DNA of 64,000 nt from a virus. How positions within the stretch are numbered: position 1 is the first letter of the stretch; the number at the start of each line of letters is the position of its first letter. The position numbers were made by a program, and so were the translations under genes. Below, in pieces: positions 29,471 through 59,131 of this stretch. The notes under the pieces are model-generated. The model was not told the origin of the DNA. It saw only the letters and a program-made list of their open reading frames with translations, and made no database searches. The DNA lies in the IMG/VR virus record IMGVR_UViG_3300034198_017033, positions 96,445-160,444 of that record; one strand, given 5' to 3'.

Positions 29471-30256
29471 TTACATTTCTTCTTCTTCATAACCTTGGTC
29501 TTCTAATGGTTTATCGAAAGTGTCTTTTATTTGTGAATAATTATAATTTGAATCTATATCATCATTGGTTAACACGTATTCTTTTTCTTTTTTATCCATA
29601 ACATCATAAGGACCTTCTTTTTCTGACCAATAATCACTTAATTTAATATTATAAGGGTATGAACTTAATGAACGCATTTCCAATTTTTCAACTGGTGTTG
29701 GGTTTCTCTTAACGATTTCTTTTTCCAAATTTTCAATTTTATCCGCTACAGAATCCATTCTAGTCAACCTAGCTTCTAAATCAGATAATTTATCCATTAA
29801 TTTTTCGCTAGAATTCTTAGATACTTTCATTGCTTTAATAGCAGCTTTTTTAGCATCTTCAGTTCCGTCAACCAAAGAAGTAACGTCAATTTCTATATCG
29901 TCTTCTTCTGGCGCTGGTTCTTCAAATGGCATTTCTTCACCACCTTCTGGAGCTGGTGCGCCGAAATCCATATCTGTATCTTCTTCTGGAGCTGGCATTT
30001 CTTCACCACCAGTTTCAGCTGGAGTTTGGTCTTCCATACCTGCCGCTTGGTCAAAACCTAATTCTTCTTGTTCTTCACCTGCTTGTGGTTCTTCTTCAGC
30101 CTCTTCTAACTCACCACCTAAGATAACAGGTTTTTCTGGTGTGGCTGATGGTGACATAACATTTTCTTCGTGATAAAAAGAATATTCGGTTAAAAGTTTA
30201 AAGCGTTTAGCTTCCTCTTTTATTAATTCTGGGTTAAACGTAACTTTCTTTTTCAT
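29471..30256 (-). CDS. Acidic Pro/Glu-rich coiled-coil protein with (L)TE N-terminal site (261 aa)
   Basis: The N-terminus is basic (MKKKVTFNPELIKEEAKRFK) and runs into LLTEYSFY, which contains an L-T-E sequence like the sites cut by T4-type prohead protease. Residues about 45-125 are extremely acidic with repeats of the type PAPEEDTDMDFGAPAPEGGEEMP. Residues about 130-185 form a Lys/Glu coiled coil (KLSDLEARLTRMDSVADKIE). The tail end is also acidic (YEEEEM). Acidic, coiled-coil, protease-processed proteins in T4-like phages include scaffold or internal core proteins. That role is inferred here and unproven. The gene is translationally coupled (1-bp overlap) to the 62-aa gene. Confidence 0.55.
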   Translation of the reverse strand: MKKKVTFNPELIKEEAKRFKLLTEYSFYHEENVMSPSATPEKPVILGGELEEAEEEPQAGEEQEELGFDQAAGMEDQTPAETGGEEMPAPEEDTDMDFGAPAPEGGEEMPFEEPAPEEDDIEIDVTSLVDGTEDAKKAAIKAMKVSKNSSEKLMDKLSDLEARLTRMDSVADKIENLEKEIVKRNPTPVEKLEMRSLSSYPYNIKLSDYWSEKEGPYDVMDKKEKEYVLTNDDIDSNYNYSQIKDTFDKPLEDQGYEEEEM

Positions 30257-34500: not shown

Positions 34501-37500
34501 AAATAATAGGGTCCGTCTTACCTCTACCACCACCAATTATTTTAGTTCCAGAAACTTTTGGGTCTTCTTCAGATAACCACCACAATAAACCACCAACATA
34601 GGCTACCCATAATTTAGGTGTATGTATAAAACCAGCGTTTATGTCAAATAAATGTCGTATTTCAGGTACTTGAAAAGGATTGTTTTTATTATTTTTTACT
34701 GTACCACTTGGGTTATTGACAACGTTACCAGTTTCATATATTTTAAACGGTAATGTGTTTAAAAACAATAAACCTCTAACATATTTTTCTGCAATCGATG
34801 ATTGTCTATTATCATAAAAATTAATAACATTATTTTTCTGAAAATAATAAAATTTACTACCAAAAAGAGAAATTGTTTTTCTTCTACCATCGCTAATATC
34901 TAAATATTGACTTATAAAAGGATAACTTACATCACTACTATCCATATTTCTAGATAAACTCCAATTAGAACCATAATCTTTATGTAAAGGTTTAGCGTAG
35001 CTACCTTTGTATTTACCTGTTTCTAATATACTTTGTATATCTATATTTCTTTCTTCGTATGTATTAGATAAATTTATATTACCCGTTTTATTAAAATCAT
35101 AATCACTTTTTAAATTTTTAGACGCTTTTCTAGATAACCCTAAACCATTTAGGATACTATTTTGTTCATAAAAAATAAACATTGATTTTGGTTGACTCGT
35201 TTTAAACTCTTCACCAAAATTAATATTACTATAATCTGAAATTCCATAATTACCTCCAAAAACATTAAAACCTGCACTAGCAATTGAATCTTCTTTTAAA
35301 GCTTTTAAATCTAAAACCATTTCTGTTTTTAAATTTGTATCATATAAGCTTTCAGTTGTAGTTGGGATTATATCTGATGGTTGTTTTATTTCTATATAAA
35401 TACCACCATCATTAGATTTAGCGTTATCAACAGAATCAGAACCTAAAGCGTTTAAACCACCACCATAGTTTGTTAAAAATATTTTACCAGAACTAGCATA
35501 TTCTCTTAATTTATCTTGTTCAATATAAGTCCTAGCAAATGGTTCACTTTGATAAGCAGTTTCTAAATCTTCACCTTCAATATCAAAACCAATAGGTAAT
35601 AATTTAAAATCATTTAATAAACCACCATCTTCTTTGTTGACATAGTTGTAATAATAATCACCTCGCGTTGTCTCACCAATCACATATCTATCACTACCAG
35701 AAATCTTACCAATTGTTTTTTTTATGTTATCTTGTTCTATTTTATTAAATAATGATTTTACTGTAGGATTTAATAACGCATCATATAACATTCTAGCTTC
35801 TAATTTAGCCATTGTTTGTATTTCACCATCTTCACCAGCAGTTAAATAATCTTGGTCATTGGAATAACCTAAAAATGTCATAGCTCTAACCAAAACAGTT
35901 CTTAAAGCTTGTTGTGTGTTTATTATATCTTTTTTAGCATAAGGATTACCGCTAACACCAAAAACCTTAGTATCTAAAGGATTTGTTGGTATAAATAATG
36001 TTTCATCACCAGCATTTAATAAATCTGATTCTTTTTGTTGTTTGTTAGCTGTTAGGAACGCTTTTAATAAATCGTCAATAAAAACTAATTCGTCTATGTC
36101 TGATATATTATTTTTTAATTCAGGACATGAACCTAAATACGTATCAACATAAGCGTTTGTTTTACTATCTTTTTCTCTATAATCTGGCCAAGGCCAATAA
36201 TTAATTTTTTCGGTATAATCACTTTTGTTTAAATCTTGACCAAAAGCTGTTTGTAATAATTCTTTTCTTTTGACATTGTTTTCAGCTTTATTTGAAACTG
36301 TCCATATAGTTTCCATGAAAACTTCAATTAAATTAGTGAATATTTCAACCATATTTCTAACAGTTGGTTCAAAACCTAAAGTAACAGCAACCTTGTCTTT
36401 TATCTGAATAGCTAACGCTCTATTAGCGTCTTTTAAACTAGTTTCAGATAAAGATTTTTGAATTTCAAGTATTTTATATCTAGACCTTAAATCAAACGCT
36501 CTAAATGTTACGTTTGATGCTAAATTAAAATTGTTTTTTATATAATTTTTTAAATCCTTTTTAAAAGATTCTATTTCCGAGGCGTCTTTATAAATACCAA
36601 TTTGTAAATCATAGTCTGGTTCTAATTTATCTAAAGTTAATTCAGTTATAATTGTTGGTGACGCAAATTCATTTTCATTTATTGATAAGCCATTAATTTT
36701 TAAATCGTTATATTTTTTTATTGTTTCTTTTATCTCGGCATTTATCGCATTATAATTTGCATTTTTTTCATTAGAAAAAGGTGTATTATCCATAACAACA
36801 AAACTATATTCAGTCGTTTCTGTTGTATTATCTTTTTTTGTTATAGAAAATTGGTCGTTTAAATTAGCTAAATTTAAATTTAAACTAGATAATAAATTGT
36901 TAGATTCTTGAAACGAAACTATATCTTTTGATTCAGATGAAGTTGCAGCAGCTTTTTGTATTTCCTCACTTATATCAGCTATTTTTTTTCTTAATTCAAC
37001 TAAATTTAAAATAGGTTGTTTACCTTTGTCTGTTCTTTCTGTGTTGTAATTATTAAATATAGTCTCACCAATATTTGTTAAATGAATAACTTTTAAAACA
37101 CCAACAAGCATGTCTGATAATAAGGCATATGTATACCCAATAAACTCACAACTAATTTCAAAATTACCAGTTTGTGAATTAAATTTAGAGTTAAACTTAG
37201 TCATATGTAAACAATACGTTACTGGTTGACCATAATAACCTTTTACTTCCAACTCAAACATTGGATAAGGAAATTCAAAAAATGTTGTATATTTATTTTG
37301 TGAATTATCTTGTGTTAACGATTCTTCGTTTTGAAAAATAGAAGACCCTTTAACATCAACAAAATCAATTTTAATTACTGGTGTGTATGAAGTATTATAA
37401 TCTATATCAATATTAGTAATACCAAATGTTTCTGGGTTAAACTCATCTTTGTCAAATACTGTTGTTAATTGAGTGTACTTTGTTGTTAACACTTTTTTAC

Positions 37501-44718: not shown

Positions 44719-45987
44719 TTAACTATTTTTTTTTAATTTTTCATAAGATGTATAACCTTCAGAATCTAAAAATTTAATTCTGACATTTTCAACAAAATAT
44801 TTATTTTCCTCGACATTATTTTTATTAACATATACGTCACAAAAATATTCATCAGGTCTTTCACCAGTTGGTTTTTTTACAATTATCTTGAAACCAAAAG
44901 ACCCACCACTACTTCTATATGTTAAAACTTTTACGTCACCTAACCCAGCTTCATATTGTCTAACAGTTGCTTTATAATAACCAGCGTTTAAAGTAAAATT
45001 TTTAAATTCTTCTTCATTTATTTTTTTATACCTTATATTAATATCATCAAATAAATAAAAACTAGCTCTTTTATTTTCTTTATTAGCAAATCCTGGTAAT
45101 TTTTCATCAATTTTTTTATTAAAATAACCGTTAATTATTTCATATGCGGGAAAAATACCTTTACCTCTAGCTTTTTCGTTATTTAAAGCAGACGTGAAAT
45201 AATTCCAAAATGAAGGTGCTTTATAAAAAGCTTTCTTTAAATTAGGGTCGTTTATGATTTCTTTATAATACTTATTAAATAAATCATTATAATAATCAGG
45301 GTTAATTTTATTTTTATTTTTTTCTATGTTAATCTCTTCAAATTTTATAATTTCTTCAATTTGATTATCACCATCATTTTTAATAATTGTCATTTCTTTA
45401 TTTTTATCATCTATATTTTTAATAACAACATCAAAATTATCTTGGTCTTTACCATAAACATCATCACCTTCAATAGAAGTTATTGTAATAGAATAAGTTT
45501 CATCATTTTGATTTTTAACTGTTATTACATTATTAACTTCTAAACCACTTAAATTTTTAGATTGATTATTTTGTTGTTGATTTACATTTATGTTGTTATT
45601 TGACTGATTATTTGTTGGTTTAGTAATATTTTCTGGAGCGACAAATAAATCATTATCTCTCCAAATATTCATATCTTTAACATAAACTTTTTTAGGTATG
45701 TATTTTTTAGCAACATCATCAAATTGATGATAAGTTAAAAAATCGTTTTTTTCGTTGAATTCACCAATCCTTAACATTATTTTTTCATTTTTTGGACCAT
45801 AAGCTAAAATTTCATTATTAGGTATGTTTACGCTAGTGATTTTTAAATTTACGTTTTGATTATTTTTTAACGTAAAACTTAAAATATCACCATTCTTAAT
45901 GTATTTAAAATCATTATTTATGTCTTCCAATAAAAATTTAGTTAACTTAAGATATTGTGTTTCAGTTAAAATTATTTTCTTTTTCAT
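44719..45987 (-). CDS. Virion-associated protein with TETQY N-terminal tag (422 aa)
   Basis: The N-terminus MKKKIILTETQYLKLTKFLLED is closely related to that of the 123-aa protein at 50167-50538 and ends in a possible L-L-E cleavage site. Two small beta modules follow, each reading like an SH3-type fold: residues about 34-90 (GDILSFTLKNNQNVNLKITS) and about 152-205 (NVITVKNQNDETYSITITS). They are separated by an Asn/Gln-rich linker. The C-terminal half is Lys/Tyr-rich alpha/beta. It lies between the chaperone and tape-measure genes and has its own late motif 13 nt upstream. I do not recognise the family; a packaged or ejected protein is an inference. Confidence 0.5.
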   Translation of the reverse strand: MKKKIILTETQYLKLTKFLLEDINNDFKYIKNGDILSFTLKNNQNVNLKITSVNIPNNEILAYGPKNEKIMLRIGEFNEKNDFLTYHQFDDVAKKYIPKKVYVKDMNIWRDNDLFVAPENITKPTNNQSNNNINVNQQQNNQSKNLSGLEVNNVITVKNQNDETYSITITSIEGDDVYGKDQDNFDVVIKNIDDKNKEMTIIKNDGDNQIEEIIKFEEINIEKNKNKINPDYYNDLFNKYYKEIINDPNLKKAFYKAPSFWNYFTSALNNEKARGKGIFPAYEIINGYFNKKIDEKLPGFANKENKRASFYLFDDINIRYKKINEEEFKNFTLNAGYYKATVRQYEAGLGDVKVLTYRSSGGSFGFKIIVKKPTGERPDEYFCDVYVNKNNVEENKYFVENVRIKFLDSEGYTSYEKLKKNS

Positions 45988-47569: not shown

Positions 47570-48265
47570 TTATTTTAATTCTAATTTACCAATATTAATT
47601 GATAAGATAATATTATTTATTTCTTTAGATTTATAATCTAAATCACCAAAACTAAGATAAGTTAAATTACAATGACTTAATTCAAATCTATCGATTACAA
47701 CACCAGTTGGGTCTAACTCTTCAATATAAAATGAGAATTTTTTTTGGGTTTCTAAATAATTTAATAGGTTTTTATTTTTATTTTGTATTTTGTCATAAAA
47801 TTCAATGTTTATTTGAGAACAATTTTTTTCATAACCATAAGTTAACCCTAAAATTTTTTTTGGTTTTAAAATAACTGTAGGTCTGTTTATATTTTTAACA
47901 TCCCATATATCAATACCAAATTCTTTTGGTAAATGAACTAAAAACCTATTTTTTAATTTAGGTTCTTTAATATTAGGATTTATCATTTTAGGTGTTTCTA
48001 ACAAAGGATTTTTATTACCAGTTAACTTTTCATAATAAGGATTTGGTTCACCTGTTTTAGGGTCATACATAGGAACCTCATTTTTCCTTTTATCTAAATA
48101 TTCATTAATTGATTTAGGATAATCACCTTTAATACTTTTCGCATCCTCATGTCTATTCCCAATAGGTGGTGTTTTTTTTAAATAACTTTTAACACCATTT
48201 AAATGTTTAATCTCTAAGGTGTCTCCACTTAAAATTTCTTTTTTATTTTTAACTTGTTTATTCAT
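47570..48265 (-). CDS. Tail-tube-like protein with N-terminal extension (231 aa)
   Basis: The C-terminal 130 residues are homologous to the tail tube protein at 49567-50055. The two align as KNRFLVHLPKEFGIDIWDV / KNRWLITFPADLGIQQWWL, ELDPTGVVIDRFELS / EMLDPTGVVIEKWLLD and YLSFGDLDYKSKEI / NVGFGDLSFEDDGI. An extra N-terminal 100 residues are basic and polar. T4 has gp48 and gp54 as tube-like proteins that start the tube on the baseplate; this protein is a good candidate for such a job, although its sequence cannot be tied to either. Late motif upstream at 48282-48289. Confidence 0.7.
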   Translation of the reverse strand: MNKQVKNKKEILSGDTLEIKHLNGVKSYLKKTPPIGNRHEDAKSIKGDYPKSINEYLDKRKNEVPMYDPKTGEPNPYYEKLTGNKNPLLETPKMINPNIKEPKLKNRFLVHLPKEFGIDIWDVKNINRPTVILKPKKILGLTYGYEKNCSQINIEFYDKIQNKNKNLLNYLETQKKFSFYIEELDPTGVVIDRFELSHCNLTYLSFGDLDYKSKEINNIILSINIGKLELK

Positions 48266-48281
48266 TTTAAAACTATTTAAA

Positions 48282-48289
48282 AATAAATA
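48282..48289 (-). promoter_or_regulatory. Putative late promoter motif
   Basis: Minus-strand reading CTTATATTTATTTTTAAATAG, 16 nt before the ATG of the tube-like gene. Confidence 0.4.
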
Positions 48290-48311
48290 TAAGAAAGTTA
48301 ATTTTTTTGTA

Positions 48312-48358
48312 AATAAAAAATGAGCTGATTAAATTAAATTAAATAATCAACTCATTTT
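48312..48358 (-). terminator. Terminator after 138-aa gene
   Basis: Long stem AAAATGAG-(U/G)-TGATTA paired with TAATCA-CTCATTTT around a 12-nt AT loop, ending in T-rich sequence on the minus strand. Confidence 0.75.
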
Positions 48359-48375
48359 ATTTTAGTTTGTTATTA

Positions 48376-48792
48376 TTATTCTAAACCACCTTGACTTTTT
48401 ATATGATTTACCATATCACTAGTATCACCAATAGGGCTTTCAGTACCAAATGACCTACCAATCATACTATAGGTTTGACCAAACGATTGTAATTTAGGTA
48501 TATTTGTATTTTTTAATTTTTCAGCCATGGTTAAATACATTTGTTTTTTAATTTCTGGTTCAGCACCATGAACACTAAGTGTTTTTTTCATTAAATCATA
48601 TATTTTAGCATCAACCATACCTAAATCTTTATCGTTATCATAAGCATAAATATAATCTTTTAATAAATCATTGGTTACCCCATCAACATCTGTTATAGGA
48701 CCTTCGTTAATCAAACCTTTAGTCACCAAATATCTTTGTTCTGCTAATATATTTGCTTTTTTTAAATTTATTTTTTTATCAAATCTTCTCAT
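48376..48792 (-). CDS. Putative internal/virion protein with EQRYL tag (138 aa)
   Basis: The N-terminus MRRFDKKINLKKANILAEQRYLV is clearly related to that of the ADP-ribosyltransferase-like protein just upstream (RKVNLLIEQRYLS), while the rest of the two proteins differs. The sequence I-L-A-E before Q fits the (I/L)xE site of T4-type prohead protease. The remainder (residues 30-138) is helical and polar, with no known motif. It lies 8 bp downstream of the ART-like gene and ends at a terminator. Its likely role is a packaged, processed head protein that rides along with the effector. Family unknown. Confidence 0.55.
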   Translation of the reverse strand: MRRFDKKINLKKANILAEQRYLVTKGLINEGPITDVDGVTNDLLKDYIYAYDNDKDLGMVDAKIYDLMKKTLSVHGAEPEIKKQMYLTMAEKLKNTNIPKLQSFGQTYSMIGRSFGTESPIGDTSDMVNHIKSQGGLE

Positions 48793-48800
48793 AGTTTTAT

Positions 48801-49466
48801 TTAATTATTTATTTTTATATTTTTTAAATTAGGTTTAGTGTTAAATAAATCTTCAACACCATCTTTTATTTCATTATTTAATTGGTTATTTTTATTTGCT
48901 TCAACGTATTTTTTAAAAGATAATATGTCTTTTTCATCACCCAAAATATGTATATTTTCTAAATATAAAGCAACATAAACTATATCTGAACCATAATAAT
49001 CAATAATAGTATCATACCCTTCTTTTCTAATGTATTGGTTGATAAAACCACTCAAAGAATCCCTATGGTGATAATCTGGACTATCTTTTAACTTATTTGC
49101 TAATTTACTCCATTCTTGTTTAAGTAATATATTATTAAACGCCATACTAGAATTTATCTTAACAAATATCGTATTATCACCAAACTCACCAACACTATAT
49201 TTGTGGTTTCTATCAAAAAAATATACACCTGAACCATATGTTCCATCCTGAGATACCCTAAAAGACCCACCTTCAAGTTCTTTAGACTTTGTTCCATGGT
49301 ATAGTATTTTTTTAATATCAGAATTAGGGAAAATAGTATCTAAATAACCAGAGTATAACTGTTTAAGTCTAACTTCATTCTCACCACCATTAAATTCACT
49401 CAAATATCGTTGTTCTATTAATAAATTAACTTTTCTAATATTTTTTAGTTTATCTAATTTTCGCAT
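48801..49466 (-). CDS. ADP-ribosyltransferase-like protein with capsid-targeting-type N-terminus
   Basis: Residues about 50-105 resemble ADP-ribosyltransferase folds: ILYHGTKSKELE (the H motif) then YGSGVYFFDRNHKYSVGEFG (the G-x-YF motif and helix), and a later GYDTIIDYY ... VYVALYLENIHIL like the last strand and third motif. The N-terminus (LDKLKNIRKVNLLIEQRYL) looks like a targeting peptide with a cleavage site after L-I-E, also found on the neighbouring 138-aa protein. T4 packages its Alt ADP-ribosyltransferase in the same fashion. The ATG at 49466 is preferred to the upstream one at 49508, because the promoter motif lies 11 nt before it and the tag starts there. The target is unknown. Confidence 0.6.
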   Translation of the reverse strand: MRKLDKLKNIRKVNLLIEQRYLSEFNGGENEVRLKQLYSGYLDTIFPNSDIKKILYHGTKSKELEGGSFRVSQDGTYGSGVYFFDRNHKYSVGEFGDNTIFVKINSSMAFNNILLKQEWSKLANKLKDSPDYHHRDSLSGFINQYIRKEGYDTIIDYYGSDIVYVALYLENIHILGDEKDILSFKKYVEANKNNQLNNEIKDGVEDLFNTKPNLKNIKINN

Positions 49467-49566: not shown

Positions 49567-50055
49567 TTAGAATAATAAGATTGCTCTATCAAACCTAAGA
49601 GTTGCTGTAATCTCAGCGATACCATCATCCTCAAATGATAAATCACCAAATCCTACATTTGTAAGCATAGTTCCATCTAATAACCATTTCTCGATAACAA
49701 CACCTGTCGGGTCAAGCATTTCTAACTCAACTGGTCTTTTATAACCAGCAGCGTAACCTTGACGACCTGTGATTGATTCAGAGTGAAGACGAACCCATTC
49801 CATAATTGCTTGAGTAGCAGAAGGACCAATTGGGTCACGGAATGTAACGTCAATTGCTTCCCAAGTAAATCTACCAATAACCCATGTAGATGTGTTTAGG
49901 AAAGGAATCTCAACCTCATTTTGTGTTATTGAAGGTCTAGATGCTGAAGATAACCACCATTGTTGGATACCTAAGTCAGCTGGAAATGTAATTAACCAAC
50001 GATTCTTTTTCTTAGGCTCGTATGGTAGGGGCATTTTCATTAATAAATCAGCCAT
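49567..50055 (-). CDS. Tail tube protein, gp19-like
   Basis: A 162-aa protein whose length equals that of T4 gp19 (163 aa). Features of tube proteins are visible: EPKKKNRWLITFPADLG at the N-terminal strand, ATQAIMEWVRLH as the single helix, YKRPVELEMLDPTGVVIEKW as the central beta hairpin and TATLRFDRAILLF at the end. It stacks as hexameric rings inside the sheath and forms the channel for DNA. It lies downstream of the sheath and of a 123-aa gene, with its own late promoter 63 nt upstream and a terminator behind, which suits a protein made in large amounts. Paralogue: the 231-aa protein at 47570-48265. Confidence 0.85.
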   Translation of the reverse strand: MADLLMKMPLPYEPKKKNRWLITFPADLGIQQWWLSSASRPSITQNEVEIPFLNTSTWVIGRFTWEAIDVTFRDPIGPSATQAIMEWVRLHSESITGRQGYAAGYKRPVELEMLDPTGVVIEKWLLDGTMLTNVGFGDLSFEDDGIAEITATLRFDRAILLF

Positions 50056-50166: not shown

Positions 50167-50538
50167 TTATTTTCTAAGTATTTTATTTAACACGGTATCC
50201 AAATTTAATGTTTTATCCTTTGAATATTTGTTAAAATTTGTAACGATTGATTCAATATTATCATGTAGTTTTTTATCTGAATCAACCATACCTTTATTCC
50301 CCAAATCATCGATAATTTTATTCTTCTCATTAACATTTGTCATAATTGAATAAATCTTAGATAATACTTCTTGGTTATCTAACGCTCTATCAGCTAAAAA
50401 ACCGTTTTGACCTTTCATTGGTAATCCAATTAATTTTCCGAACGCCAATATGGTGTCATTATCAAAATTGAATGATACTTCTTTTTCTTCGTTTAAAAAA
50501 AGTCTATTGTATTGTGTTTCTGTAATTATAAGCTTCAT
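50167..50538 (-). CDS. Virion-associated protein with TETQY N-terminal tag (123 aa)
   Basis: The N-terminus MKLIITETQYNRLFLNEEKE is related to that of the 422-aa protein at 44719-45987 and contains a possible processing site after L-N-E. The rest is a small soluble domain rich in Asp, Lys and Asn, with no motif recognised. It lies between the sheath and tube genes and has its own late motif 13 nt before the ATG, so it is expected to be made with virion proteins. A packaged or processed accessory protein is an inference from the tag and context. Confidence 0.5.
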   Translation of the reverse strand: MKLIITETQYNRLFLNEEKEVSFNFDNDTILAFGKLIGLPMKGQNGFLADRALDNQEVLSKIYSIMTNVNEKNKIIDDLGNKGMVDSDKKLHDNIESIVTNFNKYSKDKTLNLDTVLNKILRK

Positions 50539-50617: not shown

Positions 50618-53473
50618 TTAGATGTTATCGAAAGATGCACCAGTGTTCATAATTACGAACTCTAATTGGATGAACTCTAACGCTCTAGTTGGTTTCAAGA
50701 ATATCTGACCTGTAAGTTGATTTCTATCGATATCTTCTGGGTCATTTGAAAGAACCACTCTAAAGTCTGTAAGACCTCTTTCAGCTCTAATATTATCTAA
50801 GATTGGGTTAACCAATGATAAGAATTGATTTCTTACAACACTATCGTTTTGTTCAAATAACAATCTGATAGAAACAGCAGAGATAAGTTTTCTAGCTTGT
50901 AACAATAGTCTTCTAACGTTGATTCTGTCAAGAGCAGATTCTTTAACTTGAAGAGTTTTATTACCCCAGATTTTAACACCATCTGATGTGAAAGTTGCAA
51001 TTGGGTTAACTCTATTTTCGTATAACGCATCTCTTTCAGAAAGAGTAAGTTTTTTACGAGCTTGAATACAGTCAACATCACCTCTTTGAATACCAGCAAC
51101 AGCAAACCATGGGAATGCAATGTTGTCAGTTAACGCGATGTTTCTAACTACATCTCTTGTTGGCGGCATCCAAATGTAAACATTATTTTCAGTATCGTTT
51201 ACTTGAATCCATGGCCAATAAGTACATGAGTAGTTACTATCGAAAGAACCATCAGAATAGAAATCTGAAATTTCTTCAGCTGACATAACCTCACCACCAG
51301 CATTTGTATCTGGGGTTGTTAAAATATATAATGAGTCAGCTCTATCAGTTTCAACCATTTCAATAGCAGCCTCAATTAAGTTACTGTTATCAAACGTATC
51401 AATACCTGGAGTTGCAAACACATTAATATTAACTGCTTCTGGGTTTTTAAATGTCCAAATAGCTTCTAAATATGCGTAGTAATCTGAATTAATACCTAAA
51501 TCACCGTTTGTAAGTGTTCTATTAGTAAAAGCACCACTATTTAAACCTTTAACACCATTAGTACCGTTGATTAAGAATGAGTCTAAGTTACTTCTTCTAG
51601 TTCTGTATATATCCCATCCATCAAAACCACCATAAGGTGCAAATGTAAATTTACGCGCATATATTTTATTATATGGATTATTAGCATCTGCTACAGCAGT
51701 ACTGTTAAACGCAGCGTCACCAGTATCAAATAAGAATATTGGATTATATGTATCACCACTATTGTTAATCACAACAAATACATTGTCGATTGTAGCGCCA
51801 GTAGCATTAACGTCCATATGGAAACCTTTTGTAAGACCAGTCCACATATCATAAGTTTGTCCTACAGGAACCCCTTTATAATCAAAGAAATCCGAATCAA
51901 TACCTACAGTTTCAGATAAACCTAAATAATATTTACGTTTATTTTCAAATGTACCATAAGCTTTTTTATACTCAATAGCAGGGTTAACAACTGTTGTATT
52001 GCTATTTTCTTGGTAATCTCTAATTGGGAAACCTACGAAACCAGCTGGAACCATATCGCTAGTATCTGAATCAGTATCCATCTCAATAAGAACATAAGAT
52101 GATTTAGATGGGTATTCACCATCAAGTGTACCTATTCTTCTAGCAACGTAATTATTAGATGTTGGGCTCATAGTACAACGACTGAATGTTTCCAATACAG
52201 TTGGTTGAGCATCAGTATCGTAGAATCCTCTAACAACAACATCAAATTCACCAGAATCTAAATTAATATTTCTAATAGATATTTTAAATTGTTCGTTAGC
52301 AGCGTTACCGTCTGATATTGTCCAGAATCTAAATAATCTAAATAAGTTAGTACCACGTAATTCAGAAACTACATAAGGTGTAACTGCTGGTTGGTATTCT
52401 TTTTGATAATCAGAAAATTCTCCACTATAATTCACAAGACTTAAATTAATACCAGCTATTTTTTCAGCAGCGTTTAAATCAGTAAACATATTGTTATAGA
52501 ACTCTTCAACAAAAATTGCTGTTGTTCCATCTTGAGCTTCTCTACCCAATACTCTAGTAATGTAGTTTTGTTTTGTTTTATCAAACGATAATACATAACT
52601 AAAAGCACCTTGAGTATTAGATGTACCAGTCAACGCGAAATCACCTAAAGCGTCACTATTTGCAGCGGTATAAGTAGGGTTAAAACCTAAATTACCTGTA
52701 GCCGCACTAACTTCAAAGTTAGGTAACTGTGTAGCTGAATTTATTGTACCTCTAGAACGTAATAAAGTTACCAACTTGTTTTCAACATCAGAATATGCTG
52801 AACCAGAATAAGTAACTGTAGCACCTGTTGTTGTACCAGTTGTATATAAACCAGTAGTACCGATTGAATTAACAAATAAATTAAATGATACACCACTATA
52901 AGTAGCACCTGTTTTTTTGTACTCTACATCTATAGATGCGACATTACCTGTAGCACTGAAAGTACCCAATATATTCAATGGATTTACTAAAGTACCATCA
53001 TTATATAATTGTTGAATTAAAGGTACGTTTGAAACAACACTAACAACCTCATTAGTAGCAGTTATTGCTGTATATGAAATTATAGGACTATATGTGGTTC
53101 CTGATGAAGTTACCCCAACAGTATCAGGGTCTAATGTACCTTGTAATGTTATACCCCATGCTTTACCTGCATCATATCCAGAAAACCCTAATACTCTAGT
53201 TACGAATAATTGGTTTGATTGAGATAAATACGATTTAGCGATATAAGGTAATTCATATCTTGGTGCACCGTTATCTTTTACTCTAGTAGCATTTTGGCCA
53301 CCAAAAAAAGATTGGAATTCGCCATAATTGCCTACAAAAATTGGTTGAAATGCAGGACCTATTGTAGTCTCCCCAACTAAACCTAAAGTTGTAACACCGA
53401 TTTGACGTGTAATAAATGATAAGTCTTTTTCTGAGGTATAAACCCCTGGACTTACGAACACTTTTGTTGCCAT
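50618..53473 (-). CDS. Contractile tail sheath protein, gp18-like (951 aa)
   Basis: The N-terminus VFVSPGVYTSEKDLSFITRQIG and GLVGETTIGPA is the conserved start of sheath proteins. The C-terminal 350 residues contain the family core, with WPWIQVNDTENNVYIWMPPT, the AFPWFAVAG strand, ARKKLTLSERDALYENRVNPI and RALEFIQLEFVIMNTG at the end, which makes the inter-subunit beta sheet. It is larger than T4 gp18 (659 aa). The extra length is a Ser/Thr/Gly-rich insertion near residues 115-300 that probably decorates the outside. Late motif 49 nt upstream; terminator behind. Confidence 0.92.
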   Translation of the reverse strand: MATKVFVSPGVYTSEKDLSFITRQIGVTTLGLVGETTIGPAFQPIFVGNYGEFQSFFGGQNATRVKDNGAPRYELPYIAKSYLSQSNQLFVTRVLGFSGYDAGKAWGITLQGTLDPDTVGVTSSGTTYSPIISYTAITATNEVVSVVSNVPLIQQLYNDGTLVNPLNILGTFSATGNVASIDVEYKKTGATYSGVSFNLFVNSIGTTGLYTTGTTTGATVTYSGSAYSDVENKLVTLLRSRGTINSATQLPNFEVSAATGNLGFNPTYTAANSDALGDFALTGTSNTQGAFSYVLSFDKTKQNYITRVLGREAQDGTTAIFVEEFYNNMFTDLNAAEKIAGINLSLVNYSGEFSDYQKEYQPAVTPYVVSELRGTNLFRLFRFWTISDGNAANEQFKISIRNINLDSGEFDVVVRGFYDTDAQPTVLETFSRCTMSPTSNNYVARRIGTLDGEYPSKSSYVLIEMDTDSDTSDMVPAGFVGFPIRDYQENSNTTVVNPAIEYKKAYGTFENKRKYYLGLSETVGIDSDFFDYKGVPVGQTYDMWTGLTKGFHMDVNATGATIDNVFVVINNSGDTYNPIFLFDTGDAAFNSTAVADANNPYNKIYARKFTFAPYGGFDGWDIYRTRRSNLDSFLINGTNGVKGLNSGAFTNRTLTNGDLGINSDYYAYLEAIWTFKNPEAVNINVFATPGIDTFDNSNLIEAAIEMVETDRADSLYILTTPDTNAGGEVMSAEEISDFYSDGSFDSNYSCTYWPWIQVNDTENNVYIWMPPTRDVVRNIALTDNIAFPWFAVAGIQRGDVDCIQARKKLTLSERDALYENRVNPIATFTSDGVKIWGNKTLQVKESALDRINVRRLLLQARKLISAVSIRLLFEQNDSVVRNQFLSLVNPILDNIRAERGLTDFRVVLSNDPEDIDRNQLTGQIFLKPTRALEFIQLEFVIMNTGASFDNI

Positions 53474-53777: not shown

Positions 53778-56700
53778 TTATGACATACGTTCAATACTAG
53801 TGTAACCACCAGTTGTGCCTTGACAGTGTATCGCTGTTATTCTATATATTCTACTGTTTGTGGTATCAATAAGGTGTAACGTTGTAGTGTCACCACCAGC
53901 GGATAAAGTCTTCTGAACACCACTTATGTTTTGATAAGTTGTTGTAAATGTAATACCACCAGAATTAGTATCACCTTGTAGTGCTGCACCAGCAACATTA
54001 CCAACTAAAGTTGTATAAGCAGCAAAACTACCACTCACAGCACCAGCTTGTACAAGACCACCAGAACCACCAGTTCCGTTAATACGAATCTTTAAGTTAT
54101 CCATGGTTATCTCGGTACCAAAAGCCACGTTAAAACCACTCTGAACTTTTGTGAAGAAACTATGTCCAACAGTAGTTGTATCTACAATAACAGCCGAGTT
54201 ACCTGTATTGGTTTGTGTACCTAAACGAATAGGATTACCATCCAATGAATTAATCCATACAGAACCACTATTACTGTGTATATGAAAGTTACCATCATCA
54301 AATAATTGACCTTTAGTTCCAACATTCAACGCATTGTTAGTCGCAGAATTACTTGTAACGCTTGCTGGGCTAGTAATTGTTATGATACCATTATCTGAAA
54401 TACTAAATGTTGTTGCAAGATATGTGCTGTTGATGAATTCTATAGCACCTGTGTTGTTTACACGAATTGTTTTATTTATATTTGTTGCACCAGCAGACGT
54501 ATTTGTGACTTTTATGAAATCTACATAACCAGACCCACCAACTGTGTTACTACCAACAACAACGATACCTGATTGGTTATTAGAACCATTTATTGTAGTT
54601 GTTGTAAGAGTACCAGAATTTATTGTTGATGATGCAGACATAACTGGGGTTTTAAAAGTACTAATACTTGGATTATAAGTTAAAGTGGTTGAATCAACAC
54701 CTAAACCATTACTACCCGAGACACTACCTACAAAAGTTATATTATAATCAATAGGTGCATTTGTAATTTCTGTGATATTAACATTTACCGCGGTTGTTGC
54801 TGAAGACGATAAACCATTAAGATTATTTGCTGTTACTGTTGTAGCTGAAATTGTAGTAGCTGTTAAATTATTTGTTTGTATTGTTGTTCCAGATATATCA
54901 CCATCAGCTCTAATAAAACTAGTTGCATTTCCAGCAGCATTAAGACCCTCAAGTAATCTAGTTACGTTATCAGCATTACCAGTACCATTTTTAATAGATA
55001 ATGCACCTTCTGCCGAATTTGTTACAATCTCAGGTGTTGCTGAATTATCATACGCTTGTTGAAGTGTAGTGGTTGAAATACCACCAGTTCCACCTACTGT
55101 TTCACCAAATTTTGATGCAAACGTAATTTTGGCTTGTGCTATATTACTTAAAATTGTTGCATCTGACCTAACAGATAATATTGCAATTAATACTGCGTTA
55201 TCCCTAAAGTTTGAAAATGTTGTAAATGCTTCTGTATTAACCGCTGCAATTGCTGTTGTTAAATCAGCATATTTAGTTTGACCATATTGTATCCTAAATT
55301 GACCATTTTGTAACAAATATATTCTTTGGTTTGTCGCTTGTTTTGCTGGACTTCCAATTGAAGTGACTACACCATTTAAATCATAATTTGCTGGGTCTAT
55401 TGTAGTTCTATTGGTTGCTGTACCACCTGTTTGTGTTCTATATTGAAATGTTGTTGGTGAGTTTCCTGATACACTTATACTACTTGGGTTAAGTTGATTT
55501 GTCGTAAACCCAATACCTAACCCAAATAAAGTTCCACTACTAGTATTAAATGTTAGATTTGAATTAGGGCTTGGATAAATATTTTCATTTATTAATTTAA
55601 TCGGTGTAAACATATCACGAAGTTGTGATAATGGTGATACGTCTAAATCGGGTTCGTTAAATGCGTTAATAAGACTAGTTCTATTACCATGACCCATTTT
55701 ACCCAAATAAATATTTTGTCTTCTTTGTTGCGGTGTTGGAAATGTTGTCTGTTGTGTTATAGTACCAGCACTAGTAAGTAACAGGTATGTTTCTGTTGCC
55801 GTATTATAATAAAGTGATGGAATATTTGTTTGACCAGAATACTTAACATAAAGAACTTCTGGAACTAAAGGATTTGTTGTATTGTCAACCAACCAAGCAT
55901 CTACTGGTGCAACGTTAAACGTGTTGCTTGACGCCAACGTTATTCCAGTAAAATTAAAAACACCTGTCGATATTGTATTACCCAACAACACATTTACTTG
56001 TAGTTGTGTCAAACTTTGTACAGCGTTTTCATTAGTAATTTGAACTAATATTTTACCTGTTGTTGCATTTGATTCCAAACAATAACCAACGGTTGAAACC
56101 CTTGAAGTGTATGCAATATCATTTGGGTCGTTGGTTAAAGCCCCATCAATAGTATCAGATAAAAATACCTCTTGCCCTGCGGTAAACGCTGATGTGTTTA
56201 AATCTCTAACTACGCCAAAGTTTGTCATAAAACCATATTGTCCGCTAGGTATATCGTGAGTTGCAACACCTGAAGTTTGTGCTAAACCTACAGTAAATAC
56301 GGTTCCTAATTTTGATGCGTTAGCCAACGCAACTGTTGGTGTACCACCTGTTATAGTAGACCCTGTAATATGTAAAACTTGACCATTGTTGATTTGGTAT
56401 CCTAAATTATTGTAAATTTTAATTAAACTTTCTTGACCCAAATTTACCGTAACATCATTTTGATTTGTAACAGGTTTATAGGATAAAGCGTTTTCAGTTG
56501 AATCAAAATATAGTGTACCACCAGTTGGTGATGGAACTATTGGTGTAGTATCAAAATCTAAATAATTAACAGTAAGACCGCTAGTAAAGATAGTATTACC
56601 ATATACAGTACCACCAGACAATGGTAAATAATTTCCAAATATTGATGAACTTGAATCTGAAAAAGGTACCCAATTAACTAAACCATCTTTATTTATATAC

Positions 56701-57155: not shown

Positions 57156-59131
57156 AATGTGGTTAATTGTATTACTTGTTCATCTGTTAATTGTGTTTTC
57201 CATAAAGCTACTAATTCAAATCTAGCTGTAGCTCTTTCGCTTACTGAACCTAAGTTTAGTTCATTTAGTACTGCGGTAAAATCGGTTTGTGTTGCGTATG
57301 TGTGTGTAAAAATTATAGCACCATTAATAAAAACTTTAAAACCTAAATTTGAATAAACAAAGGCAATGTTTTTTTTAAAAACAATTGGTGATGTCAGAAC
57401 AGTTGAATTTACAGCTGTACCATTTTTAGTTATTGCGCATTCAACTTTTCCATCATTACTTGCACAGAATATTGCGATTCTGTTAAGTGTTGTACTTCCA
57501 CTGTTTCTTATTCTTAAAACAATCCCTCTATCAAACTGGTACCCCTTAACTAACAAAGTACCTTCTGTTTGACCTATAAGATTTTCAATACCTACCTTAG
57601 TAAGTGTTTCAGCGTTTTTTGTAACTGATGAGGCACCTGTTGTTATTGGGTTATAGGTTAGAGGTAGTGTAGAACCTGCTGCCGCACCTTGTTGGTACCC
57701 TAACCCTAAAATAGTACTACCCGTAATTGGGACTTGACTAGTCAAGTCCCCTACAAACCCTACCCTAACTTGAGAAAATTGTCCAGTTGAGGCGTTATCC
57801 ATATGCATGTATAACGCATATGTGTTTTCATTTATTTTAGTAATAGTACCTGTATTACCACTTAAATAATAATCTCTTGCTGTTAATGTACTAAATTGAT
57901 AAATAACTTGTGTTGCGTTTGTGTAGTTTATTCCAAAAAAATCTGATGATGGATTTTTAACAAAAAAACACAAACGTTGAATTGGAAACCCTCTAGTATC
58001 AAATTGTCTTATACTAAAAGTGCTCGACAAAAACGTTCCACTACTGAAATTATAATCAAACCCATCAAAACCTTCCCCAAATGCATTAGGTATTGTTGCC
58101 ACTTGAATAGCGTTTGTGTTATTTGTATAACCAGATGTAATATTGTTATTTGTCCAACTATTTGTAAGTTGTGGTTCAGTAAGGAGTGTCGGACATGTGG
58201 TACCACTATAATCCAATCTAGGTATATTTATTCTTGTACTTGTTGGCCAATAGTCTTGTACATTACCCCCAACTGTAAGTTGCAAACCCCAAATATACAC
58301 ACCATCCACACCATTACCTGTTGTTTTTATTGTGTCACCTAGAGATACTGCCAATCTATTGTTTGTAGTTGATGACGCTGTGAGTATCTTAAATCCTATT
58401 CTAAACCAACCATTACCTACATTTTCAATAAAACTATTAGAAATATTTGTTAAACCATCAGATGACGTAAGTTGAGAATTTGTGATTTCACCTGATTGTA
58501 AATTTACTTGAACAAAAACTAATGTAGTAAGGTTTAGAGAAGTTGAAACCGATAAAATAAATCTGACACTATTTAAACCATTGTATTTTAAATAAACTGA
58601 AGCATTACCGATAAATGGATTGAATAATGTATTTGCAAACCCTTCTGAAATTATCGATGTTATTGAAGTACTTCCAGCGTAACTATAAGTAACACCTGAG
58701 TTACCTACTATATTATAAGCTGTGTTACTGTTGTTAGGGTCGGTTAGTGTATTATTAGTTATTGTTACATTTCTTTTTGTAAATGTTGAGTTTTCTAATT
58801 GAGATGTATATTGAAGTTGGTTATACGGAACGGTTTCTAGAAGACCCTGTGAATTAACCCTTGTTGCTACTGTAGCTCTTGTAACTGCAAAATCTGTTGT
58901 TCCATCATTTGGAACAACACTAAATAATTTAGTCTCTTCATAACCGTTTGGTGTTATAACTAAACTTGCCGAATCTAGTAACCCCTTATATTCTAAACCA
59001 TTAAGTTGTGTGTACAAACAATTCTCAGCTTCAAATCTACCTAAATCTGAAAAAATTCTATTTTTAAACAATAGAATAATATTTCTTATTTTTGATGTCA
59101 GTGTAAATAACATCAGTCTTCTTAAACTCAT
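57152..59131 (-). CDS. Putative receptor-binding/adhesin protein with LamG-like C-terminus (659 aa)
   Basis: Residues about 90-115 (RATVATRVNSQGLLETVPYN) are a phrase common in phage spike and adhesin proteins. The C-terminal 160 residues look like a concanavalin/LamG fold: GTLLVKGYQF, VVLRIRN-type strands, FKVFINGAIIFTHTY and FELVALWKTQLTDEQVIQL near the end. Such domains bind surface sugars. The N-terminal 25 residues (RRLMLFTLTSKIRNIILLFK) are hydrophobic and basic, perhaps a hinge or start-site artefact. Between lie beta-rich, Thr/Ser-rich segments. It follows the repeat-bearing fibre by 6 bp. Receptor binding is inferred. Confidence 0.6.
   Translation of the reverse strand: MSLRRLMLFTLTSKIRNIILLFKNRIFSDLGRFEAENCLYTQLNGLEYKGLLDSASLVITPNGYEETKLFSVVPNDGTTDFAVTRATVATRVNSQGLLETVPYNQLQYTSQLENSTFTKRNVTITNNTLTDPNNSNTAYNIVGNSGVTYSYAGSTSITSIISEGFANTLFNPFIGNASVYLKYNGLNSVRFILSVSTSLNLTTLVFVQVNLQSGEITNSQLTSSDGLTNISNSFIENVGNGWFRIGFKILTASSTTNNRLAVSLGDTIKTTGNGVDGVYIWGLQLTVGGNVQDYWPTSTRINIPRLDYSGTTCPTLLTEPQLTNSWTNNNITSGYTNNTNAIQVATIPNAFGEGFDGFDYNFSSGTFLSSTFSIRQFDTRGFPIQRLCFFVKNPSSDFFGINYTNATQVIYQFSTLTARDYYLSGNTGTITKINENTYALYMHMDNASTGQFSQVRVGFVGDLTSQVPITGSTILGLGYQQGAAAGSTLPLTYNPITTGASSVTKNAETLTKVGIENLIGQTEGTLLVKGYQFDRGIVLRIRNSGSTTLNRIAIFCASNDGKVECAITKNGTAVNSTVLTSPIVFKKNIAFVYSNLGFKVFINGAIIFTHTYATQTDFTAVLNELNLGSVSERATARFELVALWKTQLTDEQVIQLTTL

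What the first reader, a model, noticed from the sequence alone, without database searches (positions are those of the whole stretch)
48801..49466. Packaged ADP-ribosyltransferase-like effector (possible Alt analogue)
Seen: YHGT and GSGVYFF motifs in the order found in ADP-ribosyltransferases, preceded by a 20-residue peptide ending L-I-E before QRYL. Known: T4 Alt is carried in the capsid with an N-terminal targeting peptide removed by the prohead protease, and modifies host RNA polymerase on entry. Inference: this protein is an early-acting effector injected with DNA. It differs in size and sequence from Alt, so it could be a new type.
Basis: partly seen in the sequence, partly recalled or inferred. 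Interest (0 to 1): 0.72.

Follow-up and report, generated by a model that had tools for sequence, protein, structure and literature searches.

The report
Capsid-tagged ADP-ribosyltransferase of a T4-like phage
A large uncultured T4-like phage encodes an ADP-ribosyltransferase-fold protein whose first 18 residues look like a removable 'load me into the head' tag, and the same tag sits on many unrelated proteins in related phages, so one can predict from sequence alone which proteins these phages inject into their hosts.

Summary
The C-terminal part is an ART domain of the ART-PolyVal clade (AcrIF11/PARP-like), not the Alt family: Pfam gives a sub-threshold hit, a homologue passes the cut-off, and an AlphaFold model matches AcrIF11 (E=3e-5) and many viral ART-PolyVal proteins. 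His57 and Tyr82 are present. The third, usually acidic, position is Val163, so activity is unproven. The N-terminal peptide is the stronger result. In a 306-kb contig identical to the window, the phage has a T4-type gp21 protease and gp23 capsid protein. A tag search blind to the L-x-E site found 50 tagged ORFs in viral contigs; residue 18 is E in 50/50 and residue 16 is L/I in 48/50, with a free residue between. A second [LIV]xE near residue 30 occurs in 46/50 (background 9%). The tag is carried by at least 23 unrelated cargo clusters, swaps with a second tag type, and often fills a slot directly after the tail-tube gene. Best reading: a capsid-targeting sequence loads the ART into the prohead, gp21 removes it, and the ART is ejected with the DNA. 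No virion data exist.

The parts
48801..49466 (-). Tagged ART-fold protein, 221 aa (P0001)
49413..49466 (-). N-terminal tag A, residues 1-18 (MRKLDKLKNIRKVNLLIE), predicted capsid-targeting sequence; predicted cleavage after E18, before QRYL
   Evidence: L/I-X-E rule from PMC9026906
48894..49355 (-). ART domain, about residues 38-191 (H57, Y82; V163 at the usual acidic position, D161 two residues before)
48376..48792 (-). Second tag A protein, 138 aa (MRRFDKKINLKKANILAE|QRYLVTKGLINE), unknown cargo
49567..50055 (-). Tail tube protein; tagged genes lie directly after it in many relatives
   Evidence: (phrog_4542, 1.2e-25)
47570..48265 (-). Second tail-tube-like protein bounding the cargo slot
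   Evidence: phrog_4542, 9.3e-10
50618..53473 (-). Tail sheath (context: late structural module)
50167..50538 (-). 123-aa protein with another short N-terminal peptide (MKLIITETQYNRLFLNE|EKE); possible tag family C, weaker evidence
44719..45987 (-). 422-aa protein with a related N-terminal peptide (MKKKIILTETQYLKLTKFLLE|DIN); possible tag family C, weaker evidence

Best explanation
A late-expressed, head-packaged effector. Residues 1-18 act as a capsid-targeting sequence that draws the precursor into the prohead core. The phage's gp21-type protease cuts after LLIE18 during head maturation. The mature protein (from Gln19) stays with the DNA and enters the host with it, where its ART-PolyVal-type domain modifies a host or defence target by ADP-ribosylation. 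Shown here: the sequence features, family and fold, the presence of protease and T4-type capsid protein in the identical phage, and the modularity and conservation of the tag and its L/I-x-E site. Inferred: late expression, packaging, cleavage, ejection, catalysis and target.
For: Fold and family: PF18760 hits of the protein and its homologues; AlphaFold model with pLDDT 74.9 and pTM 0.71; Foldseek best PDB hit 6KYF (AcrIF11, E=2.9e-5), then PARP4 4.3e-4 and further PARPs; 47 viral hits at E<=1e-3, many named ART-PolyVal, one a capsid-protease/MuF fusion. Tag: unbiased scan, E18 50/50, L/I16 48/50, residue 17 variable (2.05 bits), second [LIV]xE 46/50 against 8.6% background. The motif is N-terminal in 57 of 62 viral matches, while none of 31 matches in bacterial and archaeal genomes is an N-terminal tag. 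23 unrelated cargo clusters. Same cargo with tag A or tag B. Protease PF03420 E=7.5e-26 and MCP PF07068 E=5.3e-63 in G001, which is identical to the window over all aligned blocks. The MCP itself has a SSLLTE|ATT site near residue 60, comparable to the 65-residue gp23 propeptide of T4. Five other large contigs with tag A all have protease and MCP, two of them near-identical to each other. T4 precedents: gp21 cuts after L/I-X-E, and the first 10 residues of IPIII suffice for packaging (PMC9026906).
Against: No proteomic or biochemical data. Val163 at the third catalytic position may mean an inactive or specialised ART. This ART lacks the second LxE site that most tagged proteins have. The gene lies in the tail, not the head, cluster (though T4 alt also lies by baseplate genes, PMC5512222). 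The protease is seen in the identical contig G001, not in the 205-kb record itself, which ends inside the MCP gene. The direct Pfam score is below the cut-off. P1' is Gln in most tags; I did not compare this with measured gp21 sites.
Confidence: 0.74

Rival explanations
1. The tag does load the protein into the head, but the ART domain is catalytically dead and works as a binding or structural module.
For: Third catalytic position is V163 in this protein and its 82% homologue, and Y in the next relatives; only 19 of 51 sequences have E there.
Against: H57 is almost invariant and Y82 is kept. Human mono-ARTs such as PARP10 lack this acid and are active (own knowledge). D161 is two residues away. 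In AcrIF11 nearby D/E residues of this loop are needed for activity (PMC12421852).
Confidence: 0.25
2. The shared peptide is a tail-assembly or tail-tube signal, not a head signal: tagged proteins travel in or on the tail.
For: 20 distinct tagged proteins are encoded directly after the tail-tube gene.
Against: Tagged genes also lie far from the tail module (G000 54-56 kb). The L/I-x-E signature fits the head protease, which in T4 acts in the prohead. The MCP carries the same kind of site.
Confidence: 0.1
3. The peptide is only an inherited N-terminus kept by recombination at the tail-tube slot, with no targeting role; the ART is an ordinary intracellular protein made during infection.
For: The conserved 5' sequence could serve as recombination homology at the slot; CCA enzymes related to tag B proteins exist without a tag (L058, L070).
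Against: Conservation is at protein level, with free positions at residues 7, 8, 11, 17, 23 and 29 and fixed ones elsewhere. The tag also occurs away from the slot and swaps with tag B on the same cargo.
Confidence: 0.1
4. True homologue of T4 Alt (Alt/VIP2 family).
For: Same delivery logic and late tail/baseplate neighbourhood.
Against: H-Y motifs, not R-S-E; no Alt-family Pfam hit at E<=1; structure matches the AcrIF11/PARP side of the superfamily.
Confidence: 0.02

Closest known systems
T4 Alt
   Same: ART-superfamily enzyme, N-terminal propeptide ending in L/I-X-E, T4-type head protease, gene among tail/baseplate genes
   Different: Different ART clade (H-Y, ART-PolyVal), 221 aa, tag shared with many other cargos and with no evident sequence relation to T4 CTS
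ART-PolyVal (PF18760; Tox-ART-HYD2 clade of PMC5512222)
   Same: Sequence homology, H and Y motifs, fold; relatives in phage polyvalent proteins
   Different: Solo domain with a capsid tag instead of one domain in a giant protein; acidic third residue replaced by Val163
AcrIF11 (PDB 6KYF)
   Same: Closest solved fold; small solo phage ART with H-Y motifs
   Different: AcrIF11 modifies Csy1 (Cas8f) and is not known to be packaged; sequence identity in the structural alignment is only 14%; target here unknown
T4 internal proteins IPI-IPIII and their capsid targeting sequences
   Same: Short N-terminal propeptide, L/I-X-E site, unrelated mature parts
   Different: 18-30 residues with two candidate cleavage sites and a different sequence; far larger cargo range, including predicted enzymes under tag B

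Membership tests
ART-PolyVal (PF18760) | Profile match above Pfam cut-off (31.2 bits) | tested here: inconclusive
   Query 18.9 bits, 82% homologue 24.6, ~35% homologue L114 36.3; query-L114 E about 4e-25 among the candidate stretches
ART-PolyVal (PF18760) | His in strand 1 and Tyr in strand 2 | tested here: met
   H57 in strand 55-59, Y82 in strand 78-84
ART-PolyVal (PF18760) | Acidic residue (D) at strand 5 (PMC5512222) | tested here: inconclusive
   V163 at the aligned column, D161 two before; L114, which passes the Pfam cut-off, has Y there, so the residue does not delimit the Pfam family but bears on catalysis
ART-PolyVal (PF18760) | ART fold | tested here: met
   Foldseek 6KYF 2.9e-5, PARP4 4.3e-4, viral ART-PolyVal models
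T4 Alt family (Alt/VIP2) | R-S-E active site | tested here: not met
   H-Y motifs; no such Pfam hit up to E=1
T4-type capsid targeting sequence | 10-20-residue N-terminal peptide ending in L/I-X-E | tested here: met
   18 residues, LIE18; over the tag family L/I16 48/50, E18 50/50
T4-type capsid targeting sequence | Shared by proteins with unrelated mature parts | tested here: met
   23 cargo clusters; tag exchange
T4-type capsid targeting sequence | Phage encodes a gp21-type protease acting on L/I-X-E | tested here: met
   PF03420 E=7.5e-26 in identical phage G001; presence tested, cleavage specificity not measured
T4-type capsid targeting sequence | Sufficient for packaging; removed in the virion | not testable with these tools
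   Needs virion proteomics or fusion assays

The most novel reading that the evidence does not exclude
A whole group of uncultured, T4-headed large phages uses a few interchangeable N-terminal capsid 'zip codes' (tags A and B, perhaps more) to load a large set of effectors, including ARTs and tRNA-repair enzymes, into the virion, with a cargo-swapping slot next to the tail-tube gene; the injected effector set can be read from the genome alone.
Probability: 0.6. Interest if true: 0.78.

Novelty: new variant of a known kind. Interest (0 to 1): 0.62.

Why it matters
Which phage proteins enter the host with the DNA is normally known only from virion proteomics. A conserved, portable tag with a recognisable cleavage site would let one list candidate injected effectors from metagenomes. 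The cargo includes an ART-fold protein and, under tag B, a CCA-adding enzyme and a kinase/phosphodiesterase protein, which would point to counter-defence (for instance repair of tRNAs cut by host nucleases) from the first moment of infection.

Tried and rejected
tblastn of the ART and of the 30-aa tag consensus in 50,697 phage records: no match, nor for the untagged homologue P0002. ART relatives in 84,980 bacterial/archaeal species genomes: none. PDB sequence search: nothing useful. First AlphaFold model (17 sequences) was poor, pLDDT 56, and was replaced by the 51-sequence model. A search for a virion proteome of Flavobacterium phage immuto, one of the nearest cultured relatives by capsid protein, found no suitable paper in the library. 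Alt-family membership rejected. The upstream GTG start (49508) was rejected: the leader is not conserved in the 82% homologue, and tagged proteins start at M-R. Literature searches for such a shared tag family found none in the open library; absence there is not proof of novelty.

Full report
WHAT IS THERE. The finding lies on the minus strand, 49466 to 48801, 221 aa. The window is part of a 205,558-base viral record. It is identical, over all aligned blocks, to stretches of a 306,463-base contig, IMGVR_UViG_3300032268_000832, here G001, so features of G001 can be used for this phage. The gene sits in the tail module: sheath 50618-53473, tail tube 49567-50055, second tube-like protein 47570-48265. 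The next gene, 48376-48792, begins with almost the same peptide (MRRFDKKINLKKANILAEQRYL).

THE ART DOMAIN. Pfam gives only ART-PolyVal, E=0.0028, below the cut-off. The 82%-identical homologue in L004 scores higher, and L114, about 35% identical, passes the cut-off. Scans of IMG/VR gave 28 and then 80 loci with relatives; most are single domains of very large polyvalent proteins, and a few are small solo proteins that start with other short peptides. Over 51 sequences H57 is kept in 50 and Y82 in 36, while the third catalytic position is variable: E 19, Q 10, V 5, D 4, others. Here it is Val163, with Asp161 two residues before. The AlphaFold model on 51 sequences has pLDDT 74.9 and pTM 0.71; its tag is low-confidence and most of the core is confident. 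Foldseek ranks 6KYF first (E=2.9e-5), which is AcrIF11, an anti-CRISPR ART with H-Y and D/E catalytic residues (PMC12421852), then PARP4 and other PARPs. Against viral models there are 47 hits at E<=1e-3, many annotated as ART-PolyVal, one a capsid-maturation-protease/MuF fusion. Fold and family are therefore well supported; activity is not shown.

THE TAG. Four proteins of this genome share the N-terminal peptide (one of them, G000 54114-55307, in a degenerate form). An IMG/VR scan for N-[LIMF]-[LIMF]-x-EQRY[L/F] gave 62 matches, of which 57 are at a protein N-terminus, plus one in an ORF cut by a contig end. The same DNA pattern in genomes of 84,980 bacterial and archaeal species gave 31 matches, none an N-terminal tag: most lie inside one Prochlorococcus protein, the rest in short frames. 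To avoid building the protease site into the search, I scanned for MR[KR]FDK only. Fifty tag-like ORFs resulted, classed without using residues 16-18 or 28-30. Residue 18 is E in 50/50, residue 16 L or I in 48/50, residue 17 is free (2.05 bits). A second [LIV]xE between residues 25 and 33 occurs in 46/50, against 8.6% in the rest of the same proteins. Some of these 50 are close relatives of each other, so they are not 50 independent cases. In T4, gp21 cuts after L/I-X-E, and capsid targeting sequences are 10-20 residues long; redundant sites in propeptides are known (PMC9026906, PMC5694885). The ART itself keeps only the first site.

THE PROTEASE AND CAPSID. G001 has a T4-type prohead protease (PF03420, 7.5e-26) and gp23-type capsid protein (PF07068, 5.3e-63). 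The capsid protein has SSLLTE|ATT near residue 60, just before the region matched by the Gp23 profile, like the 65-residue propeptide of T4 gp23. The five other largest contigs tested that carry tag A (149-369 kb) also have both genes; two of the five are near-identical to each other. Smaller fragments mostly lack them, as expected for fragments.

MODULARITY. Forty-seven tag A proteins fall into 23 unrelated cargo clusters. A second tag, MKxxIKxLLRE, occurs in this genome; its cargos include a CCA-adding enzyme and a kinase plus phosphodiesterase like that of fungal tRNA ligase. The same cargo is found with tag A in one phage and tag B in another: L226 and L023 (49% over 190 aa), L304 and L014 (48% over 137 aa). 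A third cargo carries tag B here and other short peptides in Flavobacterium phage immuto and in L145. In related phages, 20 distinct tag A proteins, in 9 cargo clusters, are encoded directly after a highly conserved tail-tube gene. In L101 the tube gene, 100% identical to this one over the match, is followed directly by a relative of the 138-aa protein, without the ART, so the ART is accessory cargo. The strongest alternatives are that the ART is catalytically dead, or that the tag is a tail rather than head signal.

MECHANISM. Shown: ART fold and family, tag conservation with a head-protease-type site, protease and T4-type capsid in the same phage, tag-cargo modularity. Inferred: the tag binds the prohead core, gp21 removes it, the ART stays in the head and is ejected with DNA, and it modifies a host or defence target. 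Packaged ARTs are an accepted theme in myoviruses (PMC9503650, PMC5512222), so the function class is not new. The tag family, its double site, its cargo breadth and the tail-tube slot were not found described in the papers searched, which covers open-licence papers only.

Noticed in passing
G000 47768-48706 (L009:9768-10706, minus) and 57621-58793 (L010:621-1793, minus): Tag B proteins include an AAA_33 kinase with a tRNA-ligase-type phosphodiesterase domain and a CCA-adding tRNA nucleotidyltransferase: possibly packaged tRNA-repair enzymes against host tRNA-cutting defences.
   Followed up: partly
G000 54114-55307 (L009), L099:2604-3827: Tag A proteins with weak OmpA-family similarity, odd for a packaged phage protein.
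   Followed up: no
L137 and L138 (Flavobacterium phage immuto): This cultured relative has its own repeated N-terminal peptides (MENFDLKKFLVENKLT..., MKKSQLRQIIKEAL...), a GLLTE site near the start of its protease and an IVSE|ANV site in its capsid protein: a tractable place to test such tags.
   Followed up: partly
G000 35694-35858 (L018) and G001 278273-278839 (L021): Small ORFs match short internal pieces of the gp23 capsid profile (positions 154-206 and 7-44); the second starts with MKKYIVKYLTE|NYF.
   Followed up: no
L117, L131, L134: ART-PolyVal relatives lie in giant proteins; L117 has a DFDID stretch that recalls the RNA polymerases of crAss-like phages (recalled, not tested).
   Followed up: no
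L104:1546-2124 (minus), L190, L191, L202: Small ART-PolyVal relatives without tag A start with another shared peptide (M..DIRKxIDxxR...), in L104 next to a tag B CCA-adding enzyme.
   Followed up: no
window 29471-30256: Acidic 261-aa protein with N-terminus MKKKVTFNPELIKEEAKRFKLLTE|YSF, possibly another prohead-core-type substrate.
   Followed up: no
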